Positions 42,454-58,229 of a stretch of 64,000 bases of DNA are shown one piece after another; position 1 is the first letter of the stretch, and every line of letters begins with the position of its first letter. The stretch is taken from NCBI RefSeq assembly GCF_006715565.1, contig NZ_VFNL01000001.1:3348001-3412000 (forward strand), read 5' to 3'. The DNA comes from Microbacterium sp. SLBN-154. Lineage in GTDB: Bacteria > Actinomycetota > Actinomycetes > Actinomycetales > Microbacteriaceae. Both the position numbers and the translations under genes were made by a program. A model generated the notes under the pieces. The model worked only from the letters and a program-made list of their open reading frames with translations, did not search any database and had not been told where the DNA came from.

Positions 42454-42470
42454 CGGGTGACGCTCACCCG
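42454..42470. terminator. Hairpin after the MFS/small-protein operon
   Basis: CGGGTGA (42454-42460) and TCACCCG (42464-42470) form a seven-bp stem with a three-base loop, 35 bp after the small protein's stop and 43 bp before the end of the convergent methyltransferase gene. It could terminate both. Confidence 0.5.
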
Positions 42471-42512
42471 CCTCGTTCTGTGACACCCGCACCACCGGTC
42501 GTGCATCCGTCA

Positions 42513-43202
42513 TCACGATCCGGTCGCGGAGGCGTCCTCTCCGGGCAACCGACCGACGGCCGTGACGATATGGCCCCCGCGCACCGTGACCTCCCGCACC
42601 GACCCGGGATCGGCGTCGCGCGCGACGAGTCGCCACGGCCGGGCCCGGATGTCCGCACCGCCCACAGCGCACGCGAGGCGCGCGAGCGGCGAGAAGATCC
42701 GCCAGCGCCCGGTCGGCGGCTGCATGTCCACGACGGCGAGCACCCCGTCCGGACGCACGAGATCCACCGCACGCGCCCACGCTTCCGTCGCGCCGTCTCG
42801 CATGACGCTCAGCGCATAGGTCGACAGCACCGCGTCGACACCGCCGGCACTCCCGGTGGCCGCGGCGACCCGTGCCCGAACGTCCCCGGCATCGAGGTCG
42901 GCCGCATCCGCCTCGACGAGGGTGACGTTCGACCATCCCTCGCGGCGCACCCTGCCCCAAGCGACCGCGAGCATGTCGGCGCTCCGGTCGACGCCGACGA
43001 TGTGGCCGGTCCTCCCGACGGCGGCGCGCACGAGCGGGAAGTTCAGCCCCGTGCCGCAACCGAGATCGAGCACGACGTCTCCGCTGCGCAGACCCATGAG
43101 TTCGATGCCGGCGACACGACCCGCCCGGTAGACCCAGCGCTCCCCCGACAGCACGTCGTATAAGCGAGCGCCGGCGCTGTAGCGGCGGAATGGCCTGGAC
43201 AT
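42513..43202 (-). CDS. Class I SAM-dependent methyltransferase
   Basis: A 229-aa methyltransferase of the UbiE/MenG-like small-molecule group: YDVLSGERWVYRAGR, SAM motif I VVLDLGCGTGLNFPLV (near 47-60), post-I acidic IVGVDRSADML, and motif II VDAVLSTYALSVM. ATG 43202 has GAGGAG upstream; the longer frame adds a basic shadow segment. The divergent flavoprotein starts 96 bp away. The methyl acceptor is unknown; a lipid is possible given the phosphatidyltransferase downstream. Confidence 0.87.
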   Translation of the reverse strand: MSRPFRRYSAGARLYDVLSGERWVYRAGRVAGIELMGLRSGDVVLDLGCGTGLNFPLVRAAVGRTGHIVGVDRSADMLAVAWGRVRREGWSNVTLVEADAADLDAGDVRARVAAATGSAGGVDAVLSTYALSVMRDGATEAWARAVDLVRPDGVLAVVDMQPPTGRWRIFSPLARLACAVGGADIRARPWRLVARDADPGSVREVTVRGGHIVTAVGRLPGEDASATGS

Positions 43203-43297
43203 CGGTTCTCCTCGAATCGGGCGGCGCGAGTCGAGCCGGTGACCTCGATGATGCCATCGGCGACCCACCCCTCGGGCCGCCGCGTAGGCTGACGCCC

Positions 43298-44779: not shown

Positions 44780-44789
44780 TCCGATCCGG

Positions 44790-45419
44790 TCAGCGCAGCG
44801 CCCGGTAGCCGACGACGATCCGCTGCGTCGCGCTCAGTCCGACGATCACCGCCCACGCCACGGCGATCTCGCCCGCCCAGAACGGCAGGATGAGCCACAG
44901 CGCGTGCACCGCGATGGTCTCGGTCGCCTCGGCGAGTCCTCCGAGGAACGACAGCGACCGTCCGTCGTCGATTCGACGATCGGCACGCTCGGCGATCGAG
45001 GAGAACGCCAGGAATGCCGTCCCGTTGATGTAGTAGGCGAGGAGCACCAGGAGAAAGGGCCACCACGGGGCCCCACCGGCGGTGGCCCCGATCGCCACGC
45101 CCACCACGGTCGCGCCGTACACGACGAAGTCGGCGGCGATATCGAGGAACCCGCCCGCGTGGGTGCCGCCGCGTTCCTGGCCGCGAGCGGCCGCTCGGCG
45201 GCGGGCGAGCGTGCCGTCGAGGCCGTCGACGACGCGCGAGACCAGCCAGAGCACCAGCGCCGGTATCCACAGCTGCAACGCCGCCGCCGCCGCGGAGGCC
45301 AGACCCAGCACGAGTCCGGCGACGGTCAGACGGTCGGGCGTGATCCCCGGCCGGTCGAGCATCGCCGCGAGGGCTTCGAGTGGGCGGGCGAGGCGGGGTC
45401 GGAGCGTCGCGTCAAGCAT
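44790..45419 (-). CDS. CDP-alcohol phosphatidyltransferase family membrane protein
   Basis: A 209-aa integral membrane enzyme that joins a CDP-activated lipid to an alcohol. The family signature DG-xx-AR...G-xxx-D-xxx-D appears as VDGLDGTLARRR...GGFLDIAADFV (about residues 61-95). The spacer between AR and the G is about 15 residues where eight is usual, because of an insert AAARGQERGGTHA. About five helices follow. ATG 45419 overlaps the VTT gene end by eight bases. The substrate alcohol is unknown; E. coli YnjF is a comparable protein in a comparable gene set. Confidence 0.85.
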   Translation of the reverse strand: MLDATLRPRLARPLEALAAMLDRPGITPDRLTVAGLVLGLASAAAAALQLWIPALVLWLVSRVVDGLDGTLARRRAAARGQERGGTHAGGFLDIAADFVVYGATVVGVAIGATAGGAPWWPFLLVLLAYYINGTAFLAFSSIAERADRRIDDGRSLSFLGGLAEATETIAVHALWLILPFWAGEIAVAWAVIVGLSATQRIVVGYRALR

Positions 45420-46176
45420 GCTCGGCCCCCCGTCCGCTCCGGTCCTCGAGGCCGGTCGTCGCTTCCTGTTCGGAGCCGGAGGGAGCATCGGATGCCGCGC
45501 CGGCGGCGCGCGCACGCACGCGGCGGCGCTGCACGACCACCCCGGCGGCCGCCCCGACGAGGGAGAGCGCGCCGAGAACCCCCAGAGCGACCCAGAAGAG
45601 CGGTCCTGCCTCGATGCCGAACGCGCCGAGCGCGACGTAGGCCGCCGTGCCCGGGATGATCCCGACCGCGGTCGCGGCGGCATAGGCGGGATACCTGACA
45701 CCGGTGAGGCCGGAGGCGTAGTTCAGGGCGGTGAACGGCACGACCGGCACGAGGCGCAAGCCCAGGATCGAAAGGAACCCCCGACGCTCGAACAGGTCGT
45801 CGATCGCGGCGGCCCGACGCCCCATCAGCCGCGCGACGGCGTCGCGTCCGAGCAGCCGCGACGCCCAGAACGCCAGCGTCGCCCCCAGGAGTGCCCCGGC
45901 GTAGACGGCGAGCACGCCGACGCCGAACCCCCACACCACGCCCGCGCCGATGCTCAGCACGCCCTTTGGCACAGGAGAGAGGGTGAGCAGCCCGTAGATC
46001 GCCGCGAACGCCGCGAGACCGGTCCACCCGAGGTCACCGAACAGGTCACGCAGGCCGTCGACATCGAGCGGGGGCAGCAGCAGTCCAACCGAAACCGCCA
46101 CGGCGACGAAGACACCGAGAGAGATCAACCGGATGATCGCACCCCGGGAAACGCTGCGGCGATTTCGCGTGATCAT
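45412..46176 (-). CDS. TVP38/TMEM64 (VTT domain, DedA-related) membrane protein
   Basis: A 254-aa membrane protein with helices near 13-34, 50-75 (TGLAAFAAIYGLLTLSPVPKG), 80-105 and 150-190. The VTT features are FERRGFLSILGLRLVPVVPFTALNYASGLTGVRYPAYAAATAVGIIPGTAAYVALG, i.e. the RxxPxxPF-N-xxG motif. VTT proteins scramble or transport lipids or ions. The cytoplasmic tail after 218 is Arg/Ala then acidic. GAGAGG lies before the ATG; TATCGT (46236-46231) is a likely -10. It overlaps the phosphatidyltransferase and so probably works with it on a membrane lipid. Confidence 0.87.
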   Translation of the reverse strand: MITRNRRSVSRGAIIRLISLGVFVAVAVSVGLLLPPLDVDGLRDLFGDLGWTGLAAFAAIYGLLTLSPVPKGVLSIGAGVVWGFGVGVLAVYAGALLGATLAFWASRLLGRDAVARLMGRRAAAIDDLFERRGFLSILGLRLVPVVPFTALNYASGLTGVRYPAYAAATAVGIIPGTAAYVALGAFGIEAGPLFWVALGVLGALSLVGAAAGVVVQRRRVRARAAGAASDAPSGSEQEATTGLEDRSGRGAEHA

Positions 46177-46267
46177 GCGCCTCTCGTCGTCTGTGCTCTC
46201 GTCGGGGTTTCGGTCGGTGTGGACCCGCTCACGATAGCCGAGGCCCGAACCTGGAAGGATCGCTGCA

Positions 46268-47506
46268 ATGAACCTCGTATCCCGCCGCCGGCGTCTCGCC
46301 GTCGCCGCCCTGGCGCTTCCGGCGCTGGCCCTCGCCGCCTGCTCCGCCCCTGCAGCCCCCGGCGGTGAGGTGCCCGACAGCTGGGATCAGGTCCTGGCCG
46401 ATGCCGAGGGACAGACCGTGCAGCTGTGGATGTACGGCGGAGACGATCAGGGCAACGCCTACGTCGACGACATCCTCGCCCCGGCGGTCGCCGAGTACGG
46501 CGTCACCCTCGAGCGGGTGCCCGTCACCGACACCCGCGACGCCCTGAATCGCGTGTTCACCGAGATCCAGGCCGGACGCGACGACGGCACCGTCGACCTC
46601 ATCTGGGTCAACGGCGACAACTTCCGCACCGGCAAAGAAGCCGACGCCTGGCTGTGCGGGTGGACCGATCTGCTGCCGAACATGGCGAACACCGATCCGC
46701 AGGACCCGCTGCTGCTGTCCGACTTCGGCACCGAGGTCGACGGGTGCGAGGCCCCCTGGCACAAGGCGCAGTTCACTCTCGTCTACAACTCCGACACCGT
46801 CACCGACGTCCCCACGTCGATGGCCGAGGTGCTCGAGTGGGCGGAGGCCAACCCCGGACGATTCACCTACCCCGCACCGCCGGACTTCACCGGTTCGGTG
46901 TTCGTGCGCGAGGTGCTCGCGAGCGTGTCGGGAGGAGCCGACGAGGTGCCCACCGCCTTCTCGCAGGAGGCGTTCGATGAGCTCACGCCGGCCCTGTACG
47001 ACCGCCTCGCCGATCTCGCGCCGAGCCTCTGGCGCGGCGGCGACACCTACCCCGCGAACGAGGCCGAGCTCGGACAGCTGTTCGCCGACGGTCAGGTCGA
47101 CATGATGATGACCTACGGCCCCGCCACCCTCACCGGACTCGTCGCGGACGGCACCTACCCCGCCGGGACGAAGGTGCTCGAACTCGCCGACGGCACCGTC
47201 GGCAATGCCAGCTTCCTCGGGCTCCCCGCCAACTCCAACGCCGTCGCCGGCGCGATGGTCGTCGCGAACGAGTCCCTGTCGGTTCAGCAGCAGGTCGCCA
47301 AGGCCGAGCCGGAGGTCTGGGGACAGTTCACCGTCCTCGACATCGAGAATCTGGAACCGGGCGATCGGGCGCTGTTCGACACGCTGCCCGCGTCGCCGGT
47401 GGTGCCCCCGTACGAGGTGCTGTCGCAGAACGCCCACGCCGAGCTCGCCGCCGAGTGGGTACCCGCCATCGACGAGGGTTGGCGCACCGAGGTTCTCGGC
47501 CGGTGA
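46268..47506 (+). CDS. ABC transporter substrate-binding lipoprotein (YnjB-like)
   Basis: A 412-aa secreted lipoprotein. The signal RRRRLAVAALALPALALAAC ends at the lipobox LAAC with lipidated C25. The mature part begins WDQVLADAEGQTVQLWMYGGDD and includes DLIWVNGDNFRTGKEADAWLCGWTDLLPN and TFTYPAPPDFTGSVFVRE-like FTYPAPPDFTGSVF, resembling E. coli YnjB, an orphan type related to thiamine and iron binding proteins. GGAAGGA lies eight bases before the ATG and CACGAT (46230-46235) is a possible -10, so this operon has a leader. The solute is unknown. The permease follows in GTGA overlap. Confidence 0.9.
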   Translation: MNLVSRRRRLAVAALALPALALAACSAPAAPGGEVPDSWDQVLADAEGQTVQLWMYGGDDQGNAYVDDILAPAVAEYGVTLERVPVTDTRDALNRVFTEIQAGRDDGTVDLIWVNGDNFRTGKEADAWLCGWTDLLPNMANTDPQDPLLLSDFGTEVDGCEAPWHKAQFTLVYNSDTVTDVPTSMAEVLEWAEANPGRFTYPAPPDFTGSVFVREVLASVSGGADEVPTAFSQEAFDELTPALYDRLADLAPSLWRGGDTYPANEAELGQLFADGQVDMMMTYGPATLTGLVADGTYPAGTKVLELADGTVGNASFLGLPANSNAVAGAMVVANESLSVQQQVAKAEPEVWGQFTVLDIENLEPGDRALFDTLPASPVVPPYEVLSQNAHAELAAEWVPAIDEGWRTEVLGR

Positions 47507-48381
47507 CGCTCACCCCGCTGGTCGCCCGTCCTGCGCAGTCCGCCCGGCACCGCCGGGCGGGCACGCTGATGGTGCTTCCGGCGGTGGCGGCGACCGCGCT
47601 CGTGGTCGGCGGTGGCCTGGGTGCGACCGTGCTGCAGAGCCTCGGGCTCCTGCCCATCGTCGGTGAGGCCGAGCTGTCGTTCGCGGCCTACACCCGCGAC
47701 CCCGCGGCGCTCTGGGCGGCGGTCGGCGTCTCGCTCTGGGTGGCCGGAGCCTCGACGCTCATCGCGGCCGTCGTCGGCATGGCCGCCGCGGTCGTGATCG
47801 TCTCGGGTCGCTGGGGCGGGCGCGTCGTGGCTGCGCTCGGCGCTGCGACGGTCACCGTCCCCCACCTGATCGGCGCCGCCGCGATCGGGCTGCTGCTCGC
47901 CGACGGAGGAATGCTCTCGCGGATGCTGGGGGTTCCTCCCGAAGCCTGGCCGGCGTTCGTCGGCGGACCCCTCTGGGCCGCCGCCATCGCCGAATTCGCG
48001 TGGAAGGAGTCCGCCTTCATCGCGCTCGTGGTCACGGGCACCCTCGCCACGCGCATCGCGCGGTACGACGAGAGCGCAGCCCTCCTCGGAGCAGGACGCT
48101 GGCAGCGCTTCCGCCGGGTCTTCCTCCCCCTCACCACGCCGACGCTGCTGATCTGCTCGGCGATCAGCTTCGTCTACGCGCTGGCCTCCTACGAGGTGTC
48201 GTGGCTCCTCGGCCGCACCTACCCCGAGCCGCTTCCCGTCCTCGCGGTCCGCCTGTTCCAGGGTGTCTCGCTGGACTCGCGGCCCGACGCCGCCGCCGTC
48301 GCCGTCGTCACCTCGGCGATCGCGCTGGGCGTCGTGGCCGGCACCTTCGCGCTCCTGCGGCGGACGGCGGTGTGGCGATGA
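47503..48381 (+). CDS. ABC transporter permease 1 (YnjC-like, first half)
   Basis: A 292-aa inner-membrane subunit with about six helices: TLMVLPAVAATALVVGGGLGATVLQ in helix 1 and the permease coupling loop YDESAALLGAGRWQRFRRVFLPLTTPTLL (the EAA loop, with G at the conserved site, near 185-213). GTG overlaps the binding-protein stop. It pairs with the next gene; in E. coli YnjC both halves are one protein. Function: path for the solute delivered by the lipoprotein. Confidence 0.9.
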   Translation: MTLTPLVARPAQSARHRRAGTLMVLPAVAATALVVGGGLGATVLQSLGLLPIVGEAELSFAAYTRDPAALWAAVGVSLWVAGASTLIAAVVGMAAAVVIVSGRWGGRVVAALGAATVTVPHLIGAAAIGLLLADGGMLSRMLGVPPEAWPAFVGGPLWAAAIAEFAWKESAFIALVVTGTLATRIARYDESAALLGAGRWQRFRRVFLPLTTPTLLICSAISFVYALASYEVSWLLGRTYPEPLPVLAVRLFQGVSLDSRPDAAAVAVVTSAIALGVVAGTFALLRRTAVWR

Positions 48382-49262
48382 GCGCGGGGCCGGCCTCGAG
48401 CGGATCGACCCTGGTCGTCTCGCACGGCGCCGGGCGGGCGGTGCGGCTGGCCACCGGCATCCTGCTCATCGTGTGGTTCGCCCTTCCGTTCCTGCCGCTC
48501 GTGCTCTGGGCCGGCGCCGACCGCTGGTCGTTCCCGTCGCCGCTCCCGACCGCGTGGGGCACCCGGGGTCTCGTCGCGGCGGAGGGGTTCGGTGCGGTTT
48601 CCGCATTCGTCACCTCCACCGTCCTGGCGGTGACGGTCGCCGCGATCGCCACCCCGCTCGGCGCTCTGGCCGCCCGCGCTCTCACCTTCGGCAGCGTGCC
48701 CTGGCCGCGCGCCGTCGCAGCGCTGCTTCTGTCGCCGATCGCGCTGCCGCCGTTCGCCGCGGTGCTCGGGGTCAACGTGGTGCTGCTGCGCACCTACGTG
48801 CCCCCGGTCGCCGGCACCGTGCTGGTGCTGGTCGTCCTCGCCCTTCCGTACACCGCGTTCGTGATGCGGACCGCATACGGCGCCTACGACATGTCCTACG
48901 AGGAGAACGCACGACTGCTCGGGGCGTCGCGGCGCGACGTGCTGCTGCGCGTGCAGGTGCCGCTGCTGGCCCCCGCCTTCGCCCGCGCGGCTTTCCTGGC
49001 GTTCCTCGTGGCCTGGAGCGACTACCTCGTCACCGTCATCGTCGGCGCCGGTGAGCTGGTGACACTCCCCCTCGTCGTCGCAGGCGCGGCGGCCGCCGTC
49101 GGGAACGACGCCGCGGTGGCTGTGATGTCGCTCGCGGCGATCATCCCGCCCATCGTCCTTCTGCTGGCAACGGTGTCGCTCGGGCGCCGGCGGTCGACGC
49201 CGACCGCCGCCACGCCCGCCGCAACCGCCATCCCGCCCACCCCGGAGAGGATTCCGGCATGA
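48378..49262 (+). CDS. ABC transporter permease 2 (YnjC-like, second half)
   Basis: A 294-aa permease with about six helices. The EAA-type loop is SYEENARLLGASRRDVLLRVQVPLLAPAFARAAF (about 175-208). The end is a Thr/Ala/Pro-rich tail after 275. ATG overlaps the first permease stop (ATGA), and its own stop overlaps the ATPase ATG, so all four importer genes are translationally coupled. Confidence 0.9.
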   Translation: MSAGPASSGSTLVVSHGAGRAVRLATGILLIVWFALPFLPLVLWAGADRWSFPSPLPTAWGTRGLVAAEGFGAVSAFVTSTVLAVTVAAIATPLGALAARALTFGSVPWPRAVAALLLSPIALPPFAAVLGVNVVLLRTYVPPVAGTVLVLVVLALPYTAFVMRTAYGAYDMSYEENARLLGASRRDVLLRVQVPLLAPAFARAAFLAFLVAWSDYLVTVIVGAGELVTLPLVVAGAAAAVGNDAAVAVMSLAAIIPPIVLLLATVSLGRRRSTPTAATPAATAIPPTPERIPA

Positions 49263-50410
49263 CCGCCTCACTCACCCTCGACGCCGTCTCCAAGCGCTTC
49301 CGCGGCGCGCCGACGACGGCGGTCTCGGACGTCACGCTCCACGTGGCGGCCGGGTCGTGCACCGCCGTCCTCGGCCCGAGCGGATCGGGCAAGAGCACGC
49401 TGCTGCGGCTCGTGGCCGGGCTGGAAGCCCCCGACGGCGGGCGCGTGCTGATCGACGGCCACGACGTGGCGGGTGTTGCCGCTGAGCGCCGCGGCGTCGG
49501 GATGGTCTTCCAGAAGTCCCTCCTCTTCCCCCATCTGTCGGTGCTCGACAACGTCGCGTTCTCGGCGCGGGTGCAGGGTGAGTCGCGCCGCGCAGCCCGA
49601 ACCCGTGCGGCCGAGTTCCTCGAGATGGTGCAGCTGCGCGGTTTCGGAGCACGCCGGGTCGACGAGCTCTCCGGCGGGCAGGAGCAGCGCGTGGCGATCG
49701 CCCGGGCGCTCGCCGCGGAGCCGGCGGTGCTCCTGCTCGATGAGCCCTTCAGCGCCCTCGACCCCGCGCTCCGCGCCGACATGCATGCGCTCCTGGACGA
49801 ACTGCGCCTGACCGTCGGCCCCACAATCCTGCTCGTCACACACGATCGAGACGAGGCCTCGAGGGTCGCCGACCGCATCGCCGTCCTCGACGGCGGCGTG
49901 CTGCAGCACGAGAGCGATATCGCCGGGGCGTACCGCGCGCCGTCGTCGGTGCGGGTCGCGGAGCTGATGGGGGCGCGGAACCTCGTCCCCGGCGTCATCA
50001 CCGGCGGGGTGCACACCAGCGCCCTCGGCGAGATCCCGGTCCCGGATGCATCGGTGTGCGGCCCCGCGGTGCTCGTCGTCCGGCAGGAGGATGTGCAGGT
50101 GCGGCGTTCCGCGGAGACGCCGACGTCGCGGCATCCGCTCACCGGGCCCAGTCTGCCGGGCTTCCGTGCGGATGACGACGGGCGGGCGCCCCTCGCGGTC
50201 GAGACCGTCGCACCCGCACGGGCGGCGGGCCAGCGATGGACGGGGACGGTGGAGTCAGCCCGCGCCTCCGGCGCCCGCATGGACCTCACCATCCGCGTGA
50301 CCCCGACCGTGCTGCTCCACGCCGAGGTCACGGCCGCCGGAGCACCGCGGCTCGGCGAGCGCGTCGAGCTCGCCCTCCCGGTCGGCGCGGCGCACGTCGT
50401 CGCCGCCTGA
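49259..50410 (+). CDS. ABC transporter ATP-binding protein (YnjD-like)
   Basis: A 383-aa importer ATPase: Walker A GPSGSGKST (39-47), Q-loop VFQKSLLFPHLSVLDN, signature LSGGQEQRVAIARALA, Walker B VLLLDEPFSALDP and switch His in LLVTHDRDEA. After residue 235 is a regulatory domain of the molybdate/sulfate (TOBE) kind (LMGARNLVPGVI, then a second OB-like part ending VELALPVGAAHVVA). The fused regulatory domain suggests control by substrate or a signal. It closes the importer operon; tandem repeats follow. Confidence 0.93.
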   Translation: MTASLTLDAVSKRFRGAPTTAVSDVTLHVAAGSCTAVLGPSGSGKSTLLRLVAGLEAPDGGRVLIDGHDVAGVAAERRGVGMVFQKSLLFPHLSVLDNVAFSARVQGESRRAARTRAAEFLEMVQLRGFGARRVDELSGGQEQRVAIARALAAEPAVLLLDEPFSALDPALRADMHALLDELRLTVGPTILLVTHDRDEASRVADRIAVLDGGVLQHESDIAGAYRAPSSVRVAELMGARNLVPGVITGGVHTSALGEIPVPDASVCGPAVLVVRQEDVQVRRSAETPTSRHPLTGPSLPGFRADDDGRAPLAVETVAPARAAGQRWTGTVESARASGARMDLTIRVTPTVLLHAEVTAAGAPRLGERVELALPVGAAHVVAA

Positions 50411-50425
50411 CGCCTCTCGCGGCGC

Positions 50426-50598
50426 GCCTCACCTGTCACAGAGAGCGCCACCTCGCGCAGATTGCGACAACCGAGCACCCGTCCCCCGCGCCATCCACGC
50501 TTCACCTGTCACAGAGGGCGCCACCCCGCGCAGATTGCGACAACCGAGCACCCGTCCCCCGCGCCATCCACGCCTCACCTGTCACAAAGAGCGCCGCT
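50426..50598. repeat. 73-bp tandem repeat, two full copies and a partial third
   Basis: Copies at 50426-50498 and 50499-50571 differ at only about four positions. A partial third copy (50572 to about 50598) matches for roughly 25 bases with two or three changes and then diverges. Each unit contains CACCTGTCACAGAG and GCAGATTGCGACAACCGAGC. No hairpin spans a unit. It sits between the ABC ATPase gene and the convergent radical SAM gene; the rest of the gap (50599-50694) shows no gene. Confidence 0.85.
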
Positions 50599-50694
50599 CC
50601 GGGCCTTATGCGGCAGGCGAGCGGTTGACGGACGGCGACGACGGCGCAGTGCGGGATCGGCGGGGGCGCGGAACATCAGGCGCCGGCGCAGGCG

Positions 50695-52176
50695 TCAGGC
50701 GCCGGCGCGGCCGGTGCTGCGCACCGGCGTCAGACCCGACGGGCGGGAGACGACCGACGGCGAGACCGCACCGGCAGCACCGGCGCCGACGAGCGGCAGC
50801 ACGCGACGCAGCTCGACGTTCTCCAGCGGGTCGAGCACGCTGTGCTGGACGCATGCGGGCACCAGTCGGCCGTCCTCGGGGTGCGCCATGGCGTACATGC
50901 ACGACCCGAGCCGCTCCTGCGTCTCCTTGAGCACCGGGTCGTCGGAGACGACGCCCTTCTCCATGAGATCCCACGCCGGCGCCACCTGCTCGGCGTCCAT
51001 GAAGTTGTGAACGACGAACGTCTTGAACGACAGCTTCCCGCGTCGGGCGGCACGGAGGATCCGGCGAAGACCGCCCGCGCGCCGCACGACCCGGCGGGCG
51101 AGCCCGATGAGGGGCGGGATGTCACCGGGGTGCGCGAGCGCGGCGCGAGCGACCTTGATGGCGAGCACCGGCTTCGGCACGTCGCCGAACACCATCCCGC
51201 CGTGGTGGGCGAGGAATCGGTCGCGGGCGGCGATGTCCTTCGGGTCCTCGGGGTCGAGCAGCGGCGCGAAGACGCCGCCCACCCGCACCCCGACCGTGGA
51301 CCGGTTGCAGCGGGGGTCGCCGAACTGCGTCGCCTGCCAGGGCAGCTTCTGCCCGGCGCCCTTCTCGATGCGCTCCCAGACCTTGTCGATCGTGACCTCG
51401 CCGAAGTCCTCCCGCCAGCGCCGGTCGTCGCCGATGAAGGCGGCGGGCTGGAACGACATCATGTCGTACGGCATCTCCAGCACGGCGCGCGTGACCTCTT
51501 CGACCTCGTCGACGTTGGAGGGCGTCACCGTCATGTTGTGCGCGAGGTAGCGGTTCACCCCGTGGTCGCGCTTGAGATCGACGAACATCCGCGCGAACTC
51601 CTCACGGAACGGGTGGAGTTCCGCCTCGCTGCGGGGTCGCACCGCCCCGCGACGGCCGCGCATGAGCGAGTCGAAGTGGGCCGCGAACGACACCTTGTCG
51701 AATCGCGGACGACCCTCGTCATCGAGAACGACGTCGAGGAGGTAGTCGTAGTCGAAGTCGCCGTGGGTCATCGACATGGGCTCGCGCCCCTGCGCGCGCA
51801 TCGCGAGCAGCGCTGCGGCGTGGTCGGCTGCCGGAAGGAGGCTGACCTCGCCGCCGATCAGCTGCGCGTGGGCGCGCGGGCCCCGGATGCGACGGAGGTA
51901 CCGCATCTGCTCGTCGACGTTGTCGACGGTGTGCGCGCCGTCGATGCGCACCTTGTTCGCATCGGCGGAGTGGTAACACGGCGAGCAGGTGAGGTTGCAC
52001 TTCGGGAAGACGCCGTGGGTCCCCTCGCATCCGACGGCGCAGCGACCGAGCAGCTGATTGTCGGTCTGCGCATGCGGCGGAAGCTCTCGCCAGCGCTTCT
52101 CCAGCGCGGCCTTGGACTCGGGATGGATCGGGCGCGTGGCCAGCTCGAACTCGCGCAGACTCTGCCGGAAACTCAT
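50695..52176 (-). CDS. Radical SAM domain protein
   Basis: A 493-aa enzyme with the radical SAM cluster motif PKCNLTCSPCYHS (C60, C64, C67), two further Cys just before (C46, C50), and a SAM-binding-like IGGEVSLLPAADHAAALL. Near the C-terminus GSCMYAMAHPEDGRLVPACVQHSVLDP holds more Cys that might bind an auxiliary cluster. Relatives modify RNA, peptides or cofactors; the substrate is not identifiable. ATG 52176 has AGGGTGG upstream. The transglutaminase/ATP-grasp operon ends 119 bp upstream on the same strand. The frame continues upstream as Arg/Gly shadow. Confidence 0.87.
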   Translation of the reverse strand: MSFRQSLREFELATRPIHPESKAALEKRWRELPPHAQTDNQLLGRCAVGCEGTHGVFPKCNLTCSPCYHSADANKVRIDGAHTVDNVDEQMRYLRRIRGPRAHAQLIGGEVSLLPAADHAAALLAMRAQGREPMSMTHGDFDYDYLLDVVLDDEGRPRFDKVSFAAHFDSLMRGRRGAVRPRSEAELHPFREEFARMFVDLKRDHGVNRYLAHNMTVTPSNVDEVEEVTRAVLEMPYDMMSFQPAAFIGDDRRWREDFGEVTIDKVWERIEKGAGQKLPWQATQFGDPRCNRSTVGVRVGGVFAPLLDPEDPKDIAARDRFLAHHGGMVFGDVPKPVLAIKVARAALAHPGDIPPLIGLARRVVRRAGGLRRILRAARRGKLSFKTFVVHNFMDAEQVAPAWDLMEKGVVSDDPVLKETQERLGSCMYAMAHPEDGRLVPACVQHSVLDPLENVELRRVLPLVGAGAAGAVSPSVVSRPSGLTPVRSTGRAGA

Positions 52177-52232
52177 TGGTCCACCCTGCCGTGTCGTCGT
52201 CGTCACGTTCGGCGCCACGGCGCGAGAACGCG

Positions 52233-52278
52233 GAGGCGATCTCCGCCTCGAAGGTGTTTCGTCGCGATCCGCGGATCG
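52233..52278. terminator. Hairpin and palindrome between the transglutaminase and radical SAM genes
   Basis: GAGGCG (52233-52238) and CGCCTC (52244-52249) form a six-bp stem with loop ATCTC. CGATCCGCGGATCG (52265-52278) is a perfect 14-bp palindrome. They lie in the 119-bp gap. The first may end the upstream operon, the second may be an operator for the radical SAM gene. Neither has a U-tract. Confidence 0.35.
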
Positions 52279-52295
52279 GATCGACGCCCTGATGG

Positions 52296-53141
52296 TCACA
52301 TCTCCCGCGTGATGGTGACCTTCACGTTGAGCTGGCTCTTGAACGGCCCCGCGTACACCCCGCGCAGGGGCGGCACGTCGTTGTAGTCGCGGCCCCGGCC
52401 GACGAGCACGTGGCGATCGCCGATCTCGATGTTGTTCGTGGGGTCGAATCCGTGCCAGTCGCCGGCGAACCACTCCACCCAGGCGTGCGACTCGCCGGTG
52501 ACCGCGACACCGACCTCCGCGTCGGGCCGGGGGTGCAGGTAGCCCGAGACGTAGCGCGCCGGGATCCCCACTTCGCGGAGGGCACCGAGTGTGATGTGGG
52601 TGATGTCCTGGCACACGCCCTTGCGCGCCGTCCACGCATCGCTCGCCGTGGAGTGCACCCCGGTGACGCCGTGCATGTACTCGACGGCGTCGCCGACGGC
52701 GATGGAGATGGCGTGGGCCGCCTCGCCGGGATGGGTGTGCGCGGCGGCGATCGAGCGGGCGAGCTCGGCCACCTCCGGGTGCGGGCGGGTGCGTGCGGTC
52801 TGGCCGAGCTGCTCGATGGTCGCCACCGAGGCAGCTGCCTCATCGCCGAGCCCGTGCCAGGTGAGGGGCGTGTGCGCGATCGGACGCGACCGCACCTCCA
52901 CGAGCGAGCGCGCGGTGATCTGCAGTGCCGCGTGCGGCGAGAGGACATCGAACGACGCCACACGCGTGCCGAAGTAGTCGACGTAGTGATTGACGGATGT
53001 GGACGGCTCGATGTCCAGCGAGGAGTTCAGGACGAACTGGCTGTCGGTCGATCCCGGCAGCATTCGCGCCTCGTTGTAGGACGCCGAGACGTTCCCCTGG
53101 TAGGAGAAGCCGGTCGAGTGCTCGATGCGGAGGCGCTTCAC
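52296..53141 (-). CDS. Transglutaminase-like cysteine protease/amidase
   Basis: A 281-aa protein with the bacterial transglutaminase N-terminal beta domain (1-90, RIEHSTGFSYQGNVSASYNEARM) and a papain-like transglutaminase core. Catalytic triad: KGVCQDITH (C177), ESHAWVEW (H219) and FDPTNN (D233). Bacterial members usually hydrolyse or ligate isopeptide or peptide bonds rather than cross-link proteins. The ATG overlaps the alpha-E stop (ATGA). It ends the ATP-grasp/alpha-E/transglutaminase operon. Confidence 0.92.
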   Translation of the reverse strand: MKRLRIEHSTGFSYQGNVSASYNEARMLPGSTDSQFVLNSSLDIEPSTSVNHYVDYFGTRVASFDVLSPHAALQITARSLVEVRSRPIAHTPLTWHGLGDEAAASVATIEQLGQTARTRPHPEVAELARSIAAAHTHPGEAAHAISIAVGDAVEYMHGVTGVHSTASDAWTARKGVCQDITHITLGALREVGIPARYVSGYLHPRPDAEVGVAVTGESHAWVEWFAGDWHGFDPTNNIEIGDRHVLVGRGRDYNDVPPLRGVYAGPFKSQLNVKVTITREM

Positions 53142-54070
53142 GAGATCTCCCCGATCCAGCTCGGCTCGGCCTGCGTGGGGAAGAACCGCGACTTGATCGC
53201 CTCGGATGCCTCACGCGTCACTTTCTGCACGCGCTGCATGTGATGCGGAAGCTCGTTGAGGATCTCGCTGACCGGCCGGTACTCGAGGTCGTTGCGGATG
53301 CGCCCGAGCGCGCGGAGCACCGTGTTGGAGTGCCCCACACGGTCGGCGCGGGGATCGATGGCACTCATGCATTCCTCTGCGAGCTGGATGGAGTAGATGA
53401 TCGAGCGGGGGAACAGCCGGTCCAGCAGCAGGAACTCGGCGGCGTTGCGCGCACTCGGCATGCCCCGGTAGGTGCGCAGGTACGCCTCGTAGGCACCGCA
53501 CGAACGCAGGATGGTCGTCCAGGACGGACCGGATGCCTCGGTCAGCGACCTCGTCGCGAGCAGGCGCGCGGTCATGTCGGTGCGCTCGATGCTGCGCCCG
53601 AGCGTGAAGAACTGCCAGGCCTCGTCGCGGCTGGTCGAGGAGTCGACGACGCCCACGGCGAGGGCGGCGCGCTCGCGCACCCACTGGAAGAACTCGTGCA
53701 CCTTGTCGCGCTGGAGGCGCCGCGGCATCCGGGCACTGGTGGTGTTGAGGGTCTCCCACAGTTCGGTGGAGACGATCTCGCGCGCACGGCGGGCGTTCTC
53801 GCGGGCCGCCGAGATCGAATAGGCGATGCTCGCGGGGTTCATCCGGTCGACGGCAAGACGCTGCAGCACATCATCGCGACCGACCCGGTCTGCGCCCTCG
53901 AGCGGGTAGGACCCCATCACGCTCAGCAGAGAGCGGCAGGCGGTGTCCTCATCGATCCAGGGGTCTTCGAGAAGGAGCTGGAGGTGCACGTCGAGGATGC
54001 GCGCGGTGCCGTCGGACCTCTCGATGTACCGCCCGATCCAGAACAGTGACTCGGCGATGCGGCTCAGCAT
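53138..54070 (-). CDS. Alpha-E domain protein
   Basis: A 310-aa all-helical protein of the alpha-E family: MLSRIAESLFWIGRYIERSDGTARIL at the start (W11 and R18 conserved), NARRAREIVSTELWETLNT, and RSIERTDMTARLLATRS. The function is unknown, but it is nearly always next to a circularly permuted ATP-grasp and a transglutaminase. Its start overlaps the ATP-grasp gene end by seven bases, so the two are coupled. Confidence 0.92.
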   Translation of the reverse strand: MLSRIAESLFWIGRYIERSDGTARILDVHLQLLLEDPWIDEDTACRSLLSVMGSYPLEGADRVGRDDVLQRLAVDRMNPASIAYSISAARENARRAREIVSTELWETLNTTSARMPRRLQRDKVHEFFQWVRERAALAVGVVDSSTSRDEAWQFFTLGRSIERTDMTARLLATRSLTEASGPSWTTILRSCGAYEAYLRTYRGMPSARNAAEFLLLDRLFPRSIIYSIQLAEECMSAIDPRADRVGHSNTVLRALGRIRNDLEYRPVSEILNELPHHMQRVQKVTREASEAIKSRFFPTQAEPSWIGEIS

Positions 54071-55737
54071 GCGTCATCCCTCCCCTGCTGCTGCTGCTCC
54101 TGCTGCTCGGTGCGCGTGCGCGGGCGGTCCTGGGGCGAGTGGGTCACCTCGTCCTGCTCGTCGTAGATGATCGGGATGGCGGCCGTGACCGTGGCCGCCT
54201 GATCGGCGACGAGCCCGGCCAGGCCGGCCCCCTGCCCGTACTCGACGTGCGAGGGCGCGGAACCACCGACGATCCAGGTGTCCTTCGAGCCGCCGCCTTG
54301 GCTGGAGTTGACCACGAGCTGCCCCTCCGGAAGCGCCACACGGGTGAGCCCGCCGGGGAGCACCCAGACATCCTCGCCGTCGTTGACAGCGAAGGGCCGG
54401 AGGTCGGCGTGACGGGGACGCATCCCGTCCTCGACGAGGGTGGGGATGGTCGACAGCATCACCACCGGCTGGGCGATCCACCCGCGCGGGTCGGCGAGCA
54501 GTCGGTGGCGGAGCGCCTCGAGCTCGGCCGGGGAGGCGTCGGGGCCGACGACCAGGCCCTTCCCGCCCGAGCCGTCGACAGGCTTGACCACGAGCTCGTC
54601 GAGCCGGTCGAGCACCTCCTCGAGCGCACCCGGATCTTCCAGCCGCCAGGTGTCGACGTTCTTCAGGATCGGCTCCTCGGCGAGGTAGTACCGGATCAGG
54701 TCGGGCACATAGGTGTAGATCAGCTTGTCGTCGGCAACCCCGTTGCCCACCGCGTTGGCGATCGTGACGTTGCCGAGCCGCGCGGCGAGCATGAGCCCGG
54801 GAGCCCCGAGCATCGAGTCGGCGCGGAACTGCAGCGGGTCGAGAAAGTCGTCGTCCACCCGGCGGTAGATGACGTCGACGCGCTTGGGTCCGCGGGTGGT
54901 GCGCATGAACACCTTGCCGCCGATGCAGAGCAGGTCGCGCCCCTCGACGAGTTCGACGCCCATGAGTCGGGCGAGGAGGGTGTGCTCGAAGTACGCCGAG
55001 TTGTACACACCGGGGGTCAGCACGACGACGTTCGGCTCTTCGACCCCGGGCGGGGCCGAGGCCCGCAGCGCCGCGAGGAGCTTGTTGGGGTACTCCCCGA
55101 CCGGCCGCACCCGCATCGAGACGAAGAGCTCGGGAAGGGTCTGGGCCATCACGCGGCGGTTGGAGATGACGTACGACACACCCGACGGGACGCGCACGTT
55201 GTCTTCCAGCACGCGCATCTCGCCGTTCTCGTCGCGGATGAGGTCGATCCCCGAGACCTGGATGCGCACGCCGTTGGCGCTGTGGATGCCGGCGGCCTGC
55301 CGGTAGAAGTACTGGGATGACGCGATGAGACGCGCCGGGAGGACTCCGTCGCGCACGCAGTGCTGATGACCGTACGCGTCGTCGAGGAACGCCTCGAGCG
55401 CGCGCACGCGCTGCTTCACCCCCGCTTCGATGCGCGACCATTCGTCGAAGGCGATGATGCGCGGCACGGCGTCGAGAGGGAAAGGCCGTTCTTCACCGGC
55501 GAAGTCGAAGGTCACGCCCTGGGCGAGATACGAGCTCGCGAGCGATTCGGTGCGTCCGCGCAGCTCTTCCTGGGTCATCTGCGCCAAGGCCTGATGGAGC
55601 TCGCGATAGGCCTCCCGCGACTCCGCCCCCGCCGACCCGTTCCGCGACATCGCGAACATCTCGTCGAACGGGGCGACACCCGCGGGCGACCGGCGGGGCG
55701 TCAGCGTGGCACCGTAGCCGTCGAACAGGTCACCCAT
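54064..55737 (-). CDS. Circularly permuted ATP-grasp family protein
   Basis: A 557-aa ATP-dependent carboxylate-amine ligase of the circularly permuted type 2 group. Visible are FDEMFAMSRNGSAGAESREAYR near the N-terminus, LIRDENGEMRVLEDNVRVPSGVSYVISNRR, LTPGVYNSAYFEHTLLARLMGVELVEGRDL, VIYRRVDDDFLDPLQFR, VKPVDGSGGKGLVVGPDA and VNSSQGGGSKDTWIVG. The C-terminus is Gln-rich (EQQEQQQQG). ATG is six bases after TAGGCT (55749-55744). The group is predicted to form peptide bonds, with the transglutaminase removing or transferring the product; substrates are not known. Confidence 0.93.
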   Translation of the reverse strand: MGDLFDGYGATLTPRRSPAGVAPFDEMFAMSRNGSAGAESREAYRELHQALAQMTQEELRGRTESLASSYLAQGVTFDFAGEERPFPLDAVPRIIAFDEWSRIEAGVKQRVRALEAFLDDAYGHQHCVRDGVLPARLIASSQYFYRQAAGIHSANGVRIQVSGIDLIRDENGEMRVLEDNVRVPSGVSYVISNRRVMAQTLPELFVSMRVRPVGEYPNKLLAALRASAPPGVEEPNVVVLTPGVYNSAYFEHTLLARLMGVELVEGRDLLCIGGKVFMRTTRGPKRVDVIYRRVDDDFLDPLQFRADSMLGAPGLMLAARLGNVTIANAVGNGVADDKLIYTYVPDLIRYYLAEEPILKNVDTWRLEDPGALEEVLDRLDELVVKPVDGSGGKGLVVGPDASPAELEALRHRLLADPRGWIAQPVVMLSTIPTLVEDGMRPRHADLRPFAVNDGEDVWVLPGGLTRVALPEGQLVVNSSQGGGSKDTWIVGGSAPSHVEYGQGAGLAGLVADQAATVTAAIPIIYDEQDEVTHSPQDRPRTRTEQQEQQQQGRDDAC

Positions 55738-55832
55738 GCCCCGAGCCTAGTCGGGGGCGTGTTGCCGCAGTGTTTCGACCCGGCCGGAGCCGACGTCGCT
55801 AGGCTGAGCGGCACCTCGACCGGAAGGACGCC
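55738..55832. promoter_or_regulatory. Divergent promoter region between the two ATP-grasp genes
   Basis: TAGGCT on the minus strand (55749-55744) gives a leaderless mRNA for the permuted ATP-grasp gene. TAGGCT on the plus strand (55800-55805) gives a leader of about 21 nt with GGAAGGA (from about 55821) before ATG 55833. Two promoters about 50 bp apart could share regulation. No palindrome is evident. Confidence 0.5.
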
Positions 55833-57044
55833 ATGCGCATCCTCGTCACCAGCTCCCGCAACACCTTCGCGCTGGATCTCATCCGCAAGCTCGGGAGCAT
55901 CGGACACACCGTCTACGCCAGCGACACCTACGGCGGCGCGGTCGGCAGCCACTCACGGTTCGCCGCCGGCCACCTGGTGACTTCGTCGCCGCGCTTCGCC
56001 ACCGACGCCTTCATCACCGAGGTGTCGGACTTCGTCGCCGCGCACGAGATCGAGGTGATCATCCCCACCTTCGAGGAGGTCTTCTACCTCGCCGCGCGCC
56101 AGGACGATCTGCCCGAGGGTGTCCGCGTGCTCACCGGCACATTCGGCGATCTCGCGCGCCTCCACGACAAGGCGAGCTTCCAGCGGCTCGCCGAGGAGGC
56201 GGGTGTCCCCATCCCCGAGACGGTGGTGGTCACCAGCGACGAGGAGCTCGTCGAGACCATCGCCCGCTTCCCCCGTTACTTCGCCCGGGCGGCGTTCTCA
56301 CGCGGCGGCGTGGGCCTGCTGACCAACACCGGTCCGCTCGCCGGCAAGACGCCGGTGGACGAGTGTCATCCCACCCCCGAGCAACCCTGGCTCGTGCAGC
56401 CCTTCGTCGACGGGCCGATGGTGTGCTCGTACAGCATCATCGTCGACGGCCGCGTGACAGCCCACACGACGTATGTGGCCGCGGAGCAGTGGGCGCACAG
56501 CACGGCGATCGCCTTCCTGGCCGTGGACAGCACCGACACCCTCGGCTACGCCCAGCGCATCGTCGACTCCCTCGATCCCGGGTTCACCGGCCAGCTGTCG
56601 TTCGACTTCGTCGACCACGGCGACGGACTGCGCATCATCGAATGCAACCCGCGACCCACCAACGGCGTCATCCTGCTCGATGCCGCCGATGTCGGTCGCG
56701 CCCTCACCGGCGACGTCGACGAGCCCGTCGTCGCCGAGCCCGGCGCAGAGCGGGAGATCACCCTCGCGGTGGTCGCCGACTGCTTCGCCGAACCGCTGTC
56801 GCACCTGCCGACGTCGCTGCACGACCTGCTGCACGTGAAGGATGTCGGAAGCGGCTGGCACGACAGCCTGGCGATGATGTGGAGCCCCGCGACCATCGTC
56901 CACGGGGCGAAGATCCAGCACGGTGACCGCAAGGAGATCCTCGCCGCTCTCGGCGACGACATCGTGTGGAACGGCGAGCCGATCGACGGGATGAGCTCCG
57001 CCGACGCCGCCGCCCTCGACGCGGTCCACGCCGGTCGGGTCTGA
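55833..57044 (+). CDS. ATP-grasp ligase (carbamoyl-phosphate-synthase-like fold)
   Basis: A 403-aa ligase: pre-ATP-grasp Rossmann part RILVTSSRNTFALDLIRKLG at 2-21, IPTFEEVFYLA, DKASFQRLAEEAGVPIPETVVV, then the ATP-grasp module with YFARAAFSRGGVGL, WLVQPFVDGPMVCSYSIIVDGRV, and metal-binding GLRIIECNPRPTNGVILLDAA (E and N ligands). The C-terminal 130 residues are less conserved. It makes an amide or thioester from a carboxylate and ATP, substrate unknown. It faces the permuted ATP-grasp operon across 95 bp, making a link likely but unproven. Confidence 0.9.
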   Translation: MRILVTSSRNTFALDLIRKLGSIGHTVYASDTYGGAVGSHSRFAAGHLVTSSPRFATDAFITEVSDFVAAHEIEVIIPTFEEVFYLAARQDDLPEGVRVLTGTFGDLARLHDKASFQRLAEEAGVPIPETVVVTSDEELVETIARFPRYFARAAFSRGGVGLLTNTGPLAGKTPVDECHPTPEQPWLVQPFVDGPMVCSYSIIVDGRVTAHTTYVAAEQWAHSTAIAFLAVDSTDTLGYAQRIVDSLDPGFTGQLSFDFVDHGDGLRIIECNPRPTNGVILLDAADVGRALTGDVDEPVVAEPGAEREITLAVVADCFAEPLSHLPTSLHDLLHVKDVGSGWHDSLAMMWSPATIVHGAKIQHGDRKEILAALGDDIVWNGEPIDGMSSADAAALDAVHAGRV

Positions 57045-57053
57045 CTCGGGCGT

Positions 57054-58229
57054 TCAACGACCGAGGAGTCCCTCCGCGCGCGACATCGCCTCGAGCAGGG
57101 CCGGAAGGCGCGCACCCGCGCCGCGGCGCGGAAGCCGCTCGAGCACGCCGCTCTCGTCGGGGAGGCGGTGCTGCATGCCACGCACGAGCCGGCGGACGGC
57201 GTTCAGGAGCGCGACCGGGTGGGTGTCCAGCGCGCTGTGTCCGTTCTCGAGCGTGACGAGCACGGCGTCCCGAGCTCTCCGCGCGGTCCGCTCGGCGATC
57301 GCGGGCGGGGTGCGGAGGTCTCGGGTGCCGCTGAGGACGACCAGGGGCCAGGGGAAGGCGGGGGTGAGCGCGGGAAGGTCGTAGGGCTCCCCCGCGAACG
57401 CGGGGAACCGCGGCGCGAGCGGGGCGTAGGTCGAAGCCGGGTCGAGCGGCAGGCCGTCGAGCGGCGCTCCGTAAGCGAGCTCGCGGAAGGCGATCACCCC
57501 GGCCAGGTCGAATTCGTACACCCCGGGGATACGGGCGATGTCCTCGTCGCGCGTCGCGTAGGCCGAGAGCGCTCGCCAGGTCAGCGGCGGTCCGCGCCGC
57601 ACCCGCCGGCGCGCAAGTGCGGCGGCCAGCTCGAGCCCCGCCAGCTCGTACGCCGCGCGGACCACGTCGAGCACCGACCGCTCATCCTCACCGCGGTCCA
57701 CGAGCGTGCGCACATCTGCCGAGAGCGCGTCACCCGCGTCCCAGAACAGTCCCCGCACGCGCTCCCGCTCGATCGCGAGGTCGGCCGTGGACTGCAGGGG
57801 CGAATCCAGCAGCATCCGCTCGACACGGTCGGGATGGCGCACGCCGAACGCGGACGCCAGATAACTGCCGTACGACGAGCCGACCAGGACAGCGCGTTCG
57901 ATGCGTTCGTGGTCGAGGACCGCAGCGACGTCGTCGAGCACCGCCAGGATGCGCATCGCCGACGGCGGAAGGGCCGCTCCGGCGAGGTCGGTCCGCGAGA
58001 GGCCGACGCCACGGTGCTCGACCATGACGACGTCCAGCCCGCCGCCCGCGGCGATCCGGCGGACGCTGCGGTAGGGACGGACCGAGGCGAGGCCCGGGCC
58101 GCCCGGAAGGATGACGACCGGCGTCGCGCCCCGGGGCCCCGAGCGCACGTAGGTGAGGTCGAAGGCCGGCGCATCCGAGGTGTCGGGGCGCCGCACCGTC
58201 TCGATGCGTTCGCCGTGCCGTGCCGCCAT
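57054..58229 (-). CDS. Alpha/beta hydrolase, proline iminopeptidase-like (S33)
   Basis: A 391-aa protein: VVILPGGPGLASVRPYRS (GGPG oxyanion motif), VEHRGVGLSRTDL, nucleophile elbow VLVGSSYGSYLAS (S119), and late His in LENGHSALDTHP. The GGPG and DHRGxG-like motifs fit S33 peptidases, which cleave N-terminal proline or other small amides. ATG 58229 has GAAAGAG a few bases upstream; ATG 58247 (six codons earlier) is possible. The two-way neighbours are an ATP-grasp gene (converging, 9 bp gap) and the GH16 terminator; if the ATP-grasp genes make a peptide, this peptidase could act on it. Confidence 0.83.
   Translation of the reverse strand: MAARHGERIETVRRPDTSDAPAFDLTYVRSGPRGATPVVILPGGPGLASVRPYRSVRRIAAGGGLDVVMVEHRGVGLSRTDLAGAALPPSAMRILAVLDDVAAVLDHERIERAVLVGSSYGSYLASAFGVRHPDRVERMLLDSPLQSTADLAIERERVRGLFWDAGDALSADVRTLVDRGEDERSVLDVVRAAYELAGLELAAALARRRVRRGPPLTWRALSAYATRDEDIARIPGVYEFDLAGVIAFRELAYGAPLDGLPLDPASTYAPLAPRFPAFAGEPYDLPALTPAFPWPLVVLSGTRDLRTPPAIAERTARRARDAVLVTLENGHSALDTHPVALLNAVRRLVRGMQHRLPDESGVLERLPRRGAGARLPALLEAMSRAEGLLGR

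What the first reader, a model, noticed from the sequence alone, without database searches (positions are those of the whole stretch)
50695..57044. Radical SAM, transglutaminase, alpha-E and two ATP-grasp ligases side by side: candidate peptide-making or peptide-tagging system
Seen: a coupled operon of circularly permuted ATP-grasp (54064-55737), alpha-E (53138-54070) and transglutaminase (52296-53141), with a radical SAM enzyme 119 bp downstream and a conventional ATP-grasp ligase divergent from the first gene; an S33 peptidase-like gene follows. Known: the permuted ATP-grasp, alpha-E and transglutaminase trio recurs widely, was predicted by comparative genomics to form and cut amide bonds, and lacks a firm assigned product. 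Inference: the added radical SAM and second ATP-grasp genes give a ligation, modification and cleavage set. No small precursor peptide gene is visible, so the substrate would be a free metabolite, a cofactor or an unlinked peptide.
Basis: partly seen in the sequence, partly recalled or inferred. Interest (0 to 1): 0.75.

Follow-up and report, generated by a model that had tools for sequence, protein, structure and literature searches.

The report
Two neighbouring gene modules, not one
The supposed peptide-making cluster is two unrelated gene sets lying side by side: a widespread three-gene amide-bond module of unknown product, and a movable nine-gene block whose radical enzyme resembles an archaeal membrane-lipid synthase and may help make an unusual membrane lipid.

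The parts
54064..55737 (-). circularly permuted ATP-grasp ligase (trio gene 1)
   Evidence: CP_ATPgrasp_2 532 bits, CP_ATPgrasp_1 495 bits; in 40 of 40 phylum trio loci read
53138..54070 (-). alpha-E protein (trio gene 2)
   Evidence: PF04168 286 bits; in 138 of 217 Microbacterium genomes
52296..53141 (-). transglutaminase-like protein (trio gene 3)
   Evidence: PF01841 and PF08379 above cut-offs; found in 37 of 40 phylum trio loci read
55833..57044 (+). second ATP-grasp protein (PRK06849-like), divergent neighbour of the trio
   Evidence: NF005315 211 bits, below the equivalog cut-off 406; within 3 kb of alpha-E in 18 of 21 genomes that have it
57054..58229 (-). alpha/beta hydrolase convergent with the second ATP-grasp
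   Evidence: Abhydrolase_1 63 bits; found in 11 of 21 ATP-grasp2 loci, including both where ATP-grasp2 lies away from the trio (window; some stretches are short, L121 ends at the gene)
50695..52176 (-). Tes-like radical SAM enzyme, end gene of the nine-gene block
49259..50410 (+). ABC transporter ATPase (YnjD-like)
   Evidence: ABC_tran 128 bits; with the rSAM in 28 of 30 loci
48372..49262 (+). ABC permease B
   Evidence: PF00528; 27 of 30 loci
47503..48381 (+). ABC permease A
   Evidence: PF00528; 27 of 30 loci
46268..47506 (+). YnjB-family substrate-binding protein
   Evidence: NF008633 440 bits, cut-off 203; 27 of 30 loci
45412..46176 (-). VTT/TVP38 (DedA superfamily) membrane protein
   Evidence: PF09335 91 bits; 26 of 30 loci
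44790..45419 (-). CDP-alcohol phosphatidyltransferase, YnjF relative
   Evidence: PF01066 34.6 bits, cut-off 22; DxxDGxxAR...GxxxDxxxD motif (motif recalled); E. coli YnjF 34% over 218 columns, E 1e-28; 25 of 30 loci
43298..44779 (+). MerA-like FAD disulfide oxidoreductase with CxxxxC
   Evidence: PF07992 and PF02852; CLHTGC at residue 58; 25 of 30 loci
42513..43154 (-). SAM-dependent methyltransferase, outer end of the block
   Evidence: Methyltransf_25 55 bits; 19 of 30 loci
42464..52295 (.). extent of the block absent from close relative G463 (L111)
   Evidence: L111 12640 aligns to window 42463 and L111 12662 to window 52296

Best explanation
Two independent modules meet at the 119-base gap between 52176 and 52296. 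(A) The CP-ATP-grasp/alpha-E/transglutaminase trio is the widespread amide-ligation module, here without its Anbu peptidase, with a genus-limited ATP-grasp (and often an alpha/beta hydrolase) as divergent neighbour. (B) The rSAM is the end gene of a nine-gene block that is gained or lost as a unit and is an elaborated actinobacterial form of the E. coli ydjXYZ-ynjABCDF type of cluster. Most likely working (inferred): the YnjBCD-type importer takes up a small polar compound; the YnjF-type phosphatidyltransferase joins it to CDP-diacylglycerol; the Tes-like rSAM uses SAM-derived radicals to modify or join alkyl chains of that or a related lipid, with the methyltransferase adding a methyl group; the VTT protein redistributes the lipid across the membrane; and the MerA-like flavoenzyme supplies thiol/disulfide reducing power. 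Shown: gene content, conservation as a block, separate inheritance from the trio, Tes-like predicted fold. Inferred: every substrate and reaction.
Against: Foldseek alone was weak and Tes is not among its 50 listed rows (best E 8.9e-4, DesII); sequence similarity to Tes is marginal (18.5 bits, cut-off 450). The Tes rubredoxin ligands are missing, so a Tes reaction is not implied. Four of 9 distant rSAM loci show no block partner (several stretches are short), and in L105 the only partner is a MerA-like gene 5 kb away. L053 carries the rSAM with no partner within 10 kb. L105 has the rSAM directly after a gene that NCBI names 'arsenosugar biosynthesis glycosyltransferase', which could mean head-group chemistry. 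The permeases' best NCBIfam matches are molybdate, phosphonate, sulfate and glucose permeases, all far below cut-off, and E. coli ynjE is listed as a molybdopterin synthase sulfurtransferase, so the imported solute may be an oxyanion. 15 of 16 rSAM genomes also have alpha-E (hypergeometric P 0.006, not corrected for ancestry), so a loose link to the trio is not excluded. No substrate is known.
Confidence: 0.75

Rival explanations
1. One reading: rSAM, trio and second ATP-grasp form one ligation-modification-cleavage system.
For: Adjacency in the window, G498, G617, L047 and G543/L049; 15 of 16 rSAM genomes also have alpha-E.
Against: The adjacency is one lineage; 12 of 16 rSAM genomes do not have it beside alpha-E; trio in 2 of 30 named loci; none of 40 phylum trio loci with the rSAM; block absent as a unit beside an intact trio in G463.
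Confidence: 0.04
2. The block makes a modified head group (for example a sugar- or metalloid-bearing phospholipid): the rSAM acts on the imported small molecule before the phosphatidyltransferase attaches it.
For: TIGR04283 glycosyltransferase (212 bits, cut-off 182) directly before the rSAM in L105, and TIGR04282 plus TIGR04283 in the YnjBCD cluster of L102; the methyltransferase has weak similarity to arsenite methyltransferases (50 bits, cut-off 263).
Against: No TIGR04283 gene above cut-off in the window's genome; the methyltransferase has only two cysteines, one in all 17 relatives aligned and one in 82%, whereas ArsM enzymes have a set of cysteines (recalled); nearest fold is a lipid-tail enzyme.
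Confidence: 0.25
3. The block is an uptake and redox or detoxification system, perhaps for an oxyanion; the phosphatidyltransferase and VTT genes only adapt the membrane; the rSAM makes a small cofactor.
For: MerA-like enzyme with CxxxxC; permeases' nearest families include molybdate and sulfate permeases, all far below cut-off; E. coli ydjXYZ-ynjABCD is in the table of operons directly activated by FNR, with ynjE as a molybdopterin enzyme (PMC3688515 passages).
Against: A phosphatidyltransferase of this type lies near the importer genes in 6 of 7 chosen loci outside Actinomycetota and 6 of 20 within, too consistent in the first group for a bystander.
Confidence: 0.2
4. The second ATP-grasp extends the trio: two ligases act in sequence on one product.
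For: 18 of 21 adjacent, all 21 with alpha-E (P 4e-5, not corrected for ancestry).
Against: None of 40 trio loci from other genera has it; in G622 and G576 it lies away from the trio but next to the hydrolase; 117 of 138 alpha-E genomes lack it.
Confidence: 0.35

Closest known systems
CP-ATP-grasp / alpha-E / transglutaminase ('Anbu operon') module
   Same: Same three families, order and overlap; proposed in print for peptide ligation or tagging (passages of PMC6376114 and PMC5666114; Iyer 2009 itself not held)
   Different: No proteasome-fold (PF00227) match anywhere in this genome
E. coli ydjXYZ-ynjABCDEF cluster
   Same: YnjB-family binding protein, ABC importer, YnjF-type phosphatidyltransferase, YdjX-type VTT protein
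   Different: Window has rSAM, MerA-like enzyme and methyltransferase; no YdjY, YnjA or YnjE match in the window at E 1e-3; YnjC is one long permease, here two
Tetraether lipid synthase Tes/GDGT-MAS (7TOM)
   Different: No N-terminal rubredoxin ligands; 18.5 bits against an equivalog cut-off of 450; profile match to the PDB sequence not significant (E 0.69; motif region 9.9 bits, C-terminal Cys pair -2.2 bits)
TrsS radical SAM (seleno)protein (NF045646)
   Same: Best NCBIfam hit by E-value (1.2e-5)
   Different: 24.1 bits against cut-off 490; match limited to 57 residues around the motif

Membership tests
CP-ATP-grasp/alpha-E/transglutaminase module | three families adjacent in one coupled operon | tested here: met
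   Pfam scores above cut-offs and overlapping ORFs
CP-ATP-grasp/alpha-E/transglutaminase module | accompanying Anbu peptidase (four-gene form) | tested here: not met
   no PF00227 match at E 1e-3 in the whole genome
RiPP / peptide modification system | conserved precursor peptide gene beside the rSAM | tested here: not met
   no called gene lies between rSAM and its neighbours (60 aa minimum); the rSAM-ATPase gap is 45 bases or less in 13 of the 23 loci where it was measured. Chance ORFs of 20-58 aa overlap the window's gaps; an unlinked precursor was not sought
Tes/GDGT-MAS | fold with rSAM core and C-terminal cluster domain | tested here: inconclusive
Tes/GDGT-MAS | CX3CX2C radical SAM motif | tested here: met
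   Cys60/64/67 invariant in 19 sequences
Tes/GDGT-MAS | N-terminal rubredoxin site C-x2-C-x20-C-x2-H | tested here: not met
   first Cys is residue 46; Tes ligands from PMC9433317 passages
Tes/GDGT-MAS | curated equivalog score | tested here: not met
   NF045702 18.5 bits, cut-off 450
Tes/GDGT-MAS | C-C coupling of lipid tails | not testable with these tools
   needs enzymology or lipidomics
YnjBCD/YnjF/YdjX-type cluster | YnjB-family binding protein with ABC importer | tested here: met
   NF008633 440 bits, cut-off 203
YnjBCD/YnjF/YdjX-type cluster | YnjF-type phosphatidyltransferase and YdjX/Z-type VTT protein | tested here: met
   YnjF 34%, E 1e-28; YdjX 28%, E 3e-18
YnjBCD/YnjF/YdjX-type cluster | YdjY, YnjA and YnjE as in E. 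coli | tested here: not met
   no tblastn match at E 1e-3 in the window
Arsenosugar biosynthesis | TIGR04283 glycosyltransferase in the genome | tested here: not met
   none over cut-off, best 55.5 bits against 182
Arsenosugar biosynthesis | ArsS radical SAM (TIGR04167) in the genome | not tested

The most novel reading that the evidence does not exclude
Mesophilic Microbacteriaceae carry a movable nine-gene pathway in which a Tes-like radical SAM enzyme cross-links or otherwise rebuilds the tails (or head) of a phospholipid made from an imported head group: a new class of bacterial membrane lipid, and a first functional handle on the ydjXYZ-ynjABCDF type of cluster of E. coli, Bacillota and some plasmids.
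Probability: 0.25. Interest if true: 0.8.

Novelty: new variant of a known kind. Interest (0 to 1): 0.5.

Why it matters
It removes a false link between a radical SAM enzyme and the trio, so nobody searches for a radical-modified peptide here. In exchange it points to a conserved gene block that ties a Tes-like radical enzyme to a phospholipid-forming enzyme, a scramblase-like protein and a YnjB-type importer. Related importer/phosphatidyltransferase clusters occur in E. coli, in Bacillota and on at least one IncC plasmid. My searches turned up no assigned function for the importer or phosphatidyltransferase genes (of the four papers listed two were opened, for passages only; ynjE alone is called a molybdopterin enzyme). 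Close strains that differ by this block (window against G463) make it testable by lipidomics.

Tried and rejected
One radical-modified peptide system: rejected on co-occurrence, the empty site and the absence of a linked precursor gene.

The first rSAM model (9 sequences, pLDDT 62.7) gave no usable fold match; a second with 19 sequences (pLDDT 78.2) did. Foldseek's own ranking of that model does not show Tes in its 50 listed rows; the Tes match comes from the VIA-align second look at Foldseek's 1000 best chains.

Arsenosugar pathway as the main reading: suggested by TIGR04282/04283 neighbours in distant loci but not supported in this genome.

Sequence search of the PDB with the binding protein, rSAM and second ATP-grasp found no significant match.

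Selections and dropped rows. The rSAM scan uses six exact peptide patterns and finds close relatives only; of 21 genomes with YnjB over the cut-off, 19 were read (own and the split G238 left out); seven of the 30 listed plasmid-collection hits were opened, chosen for spread; some reference proteins come from three of those same loci; of 12 genomes with an rSAM match, the own genome and two with fragments (G237, G259) are not among the nine neighbourhoods; of 42 non-own genomes with alpha-E, 40 loci were fetched. Rows in the rSAM tree: one truncated row (L074) dropped.

Gene maps in scripts come from a home-made codon-usage caller; the presence tables use tblastn instead. The 40-locus trio survey rests on called genes (blastp, E 1e-6). 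Distances between genes were compared by eye from the printed coordinates.
Full report
WHAT IS THERE. The trio (54064-55737, 53138-54070, 52296-53141, minus strand) overlaps end to start and scores well above Pfam cut-offs. The rSAM gene most likely starts at 52176, not at the longest-ORF start, giving 493 aa and a 119-base gap to the trio. The divergent ATP-grasp (55833-57044) resembles the uncharacterised PRK06849 family. The gene after it is an alpha/beta hydrolase.

THE rSAM DOES NOT BELONG TO THE TRIO. A pattern scan of genome contigs found 30 loci with close rSAM relatives, mostly Microbacteriaceae. By tblastn, the trio is in the stretch (up to 10 kb each side) in 2 of 30 (L047, L049) and the second ATP-grasp in 1 of 30. 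In contrast the ATPase is there in 28, the binding protein and both permeases in 27, the VTT protein in 26, the phosphatidyltransferase and the MerA-like gene in 25, and the methyltransferase in 19 of 30. L063, L067 and L074 are cut by contig ends, L055 has extra genes in between; L053 is a real exception with no partner within 10 kb. In 217 Microbacterium genomes searched with each protein, alpha-E is in 138, the rSAM in 16, the second ATP-grasp in 21. The rSAM is beside alpha-E in 4 of 16 (own, G498, G617, G543), elsewhere in 11, and one genome lacks alpha-E. All nine block genes are found together in 14 of the 16; one is cut by its contig end and one is an rSAM fragment without the block. 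In the rSAM tree the window, L112, L113, L047 and L049 (taken to be the same contig as in G543, by length) form one well-supported clade (100/94), so the adjacency most simply arose once.

EMPTY SITE. G463 has a trio 96-99% identical and the second ATP-grasp 96-97% identical, but its DNA runs from just past the small gene next to the MFS transporter (window 42463) to the transglutaminase end (window 52296) with 21 bases between the two alignments; all nine block genes are missing from the 20-kb stretch, and the rSAM was not found elsewhere in that genome (one search lists no match for it). In L116 and L121 the transglutaminase gene also lies next to a related MFS gene (71-72%) without the block. 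The block is therefore a unit, gained or lost as one, next to the trio.

WIDER PHYLUM. A profile of the rSAM found it in 12 of 396 genomes of the phylum; in nine of these the neighbourhood was read. At 49-57% identity at least one of the importer genes, the phosphatidyltransferase, the VTT protein or the MerA-like enzyme is in the stretch in 5 of 9 (L099, L100, L105, L106, L107; in L105 only a MerA-like gene), and the trio in 0 of 9. In L105 the rSAM directly follows a TIGR04283 glycosyltransferase. Conversely, of 296 genomes, 43 have alpha-E; in 40 loci fetched, the CP-ATP-grasp and alpha-E are present in 40, the transglutaminase in 37, and a relative of this rSAM or of the second ATP-grasp in none.

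WHAT THE BLOCK IS. The binding protein belongs to the YnjB family (440 bits, cut-off 203). An E. coli record shows ydjX-ydjY-ydjZ-ynjA-ynjB-ynjC-ynjD-ynjE-ynjF in a row, ynjF on the other strand; YnjF matches the window's phosphatidyltransferase at 34% (E 1e-28) and YdjX its VTT protein at 28% (E 3e-18). Of seven YnjB loci chosen outside Actinomycetota, six have a phosphatidyltransferase of this type within 8 kb, five a VTT protein and three a MerA-like gene. Of twenty YnjB loci from 19 genomes of the phylum, eight have a MerA-like gene within 8 kb, six a phosphatidyltransferase and six a VTT protein; several others sit with sugar, nucleoside-hydrolase or kinase genes, so the transporter family is broader than this pathway. 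Published work says COG0398 VTT proteins lack UndP-flippase residues, resemble eukaryotic phospholipid scramblases in the substrate region, and are most commonly fused, when fused, to disulfide oxidoreductase domains (PMC10127716, section 7 read), which fits the VTT/MerA pair here; that the window's VTT protein is of COG0398 is inferred from its similarity to YdjX. E. coli ydjXYZ-ynjABCD is in the table of operons directly activated by FNR, and ynjE is there called a molybdopterin synthase sulfurtransferase (PMC3688515, passages). The permeases are nearest, at low scores, to molybdate, phosphonate, sulfate and sugar permeases, so an oxyanion substrate cannot be excluded.

HOW IT PROBABLY WORKS. 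Import of a polar compound, attachment to CDP-diacylglycerol, radical modification of the lipid, redistribution across the membrane, with a flavoenzyme for redox. Gene content and co-inheritance are shown; the chemistry is inference. I put about 0.4 on the rSAM acting on a lipid tail, 0.25 on head-group chemistry.

THE TRIO. It is the known module. In Y. bercovieri the operon's ATP-grasp protein releases phosphate from ATP, but no specific interaction among the operon proteins and no Anbu peptidase activity were found, and the authors state that the proposed roles are unconfirmed (PMC6376114 passages). Here no Anbu-type (PF00227) gene was found in the genome. The second ATP-grasp is within 3 kb of alpha-E in 18 of 21 genomes that carry it; in G516 about 8 kb of other genes lie between it and the CP-ATP-grasp; in G622 and G576 it is elsewhere, next to the alpha/beta hydrolase. 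All 21 carriers have alpha-E (P 4e-5 without correction for ancestry). It may be an accessory ligase or merely a neighbour.

VERDICT. Observation confirmed; single-system interpretation not supported for the rSAM, open for the second ATP-grasp. The more interesting object is the nine-gene block. I found no paper describing it (searches; the library holds only open-licence PMC papers).

Noticed in passing
50425-50595: A 73-base tandem repeat, 2.3 copies, 93% matches, between the convergent rSAM and ATPase genes; this gap is 284 bases here but 45 bases or less in 13 of 23 measured loci.
   Followed up: partly
L049 / L114: Contig JASDDH010000035.1 is labelled Planococcus but its trio is 78-89% and its rSAM 85% identical to the window's, and a contig of the same length (28,258 bases) is in a genome of the window's genus (G543): the record is probably mislabelled.
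   Followed up: partly
L083, 1712-10457: An IncC plasmid of E. coli (CP063738) carries a YnjBCD importer, phosphatidyltransferase, VTT and MerA-like genes; binding-protein matches of the same coverage and identity appear in Salmonella and Citrobacter plasmid records. A mobile form of the module without rSAM annotated in the stretch.
   Followed up: no
L084, L088, L092: YnjB-type importers sit with an IU-type nucleoside hydrolase and an APH/choline-kinase-like gene (domains scanned in L084; L088 and L092 by similar sequence), hinting at nucleoside-like ligands in that lineage.
   Followed up: no
L105, 1883-3709: A fusion of a calcineurin-like phosphoesterase with an Rv1681-like radical SAM domain stands two genes before the rSAM; L107 has a gene with a similar start.
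   Followed up: no
L151, L154: A 252-256 aa gene between alpha-E and transglutaminase in some distant loci looks like the Anbu peptidase (recognised by eye from its start, not scanned).
   Followed up: no
58318-62361: Very long protein with CBM11, Calx-beta and GH16 domains.
   Followed up: no
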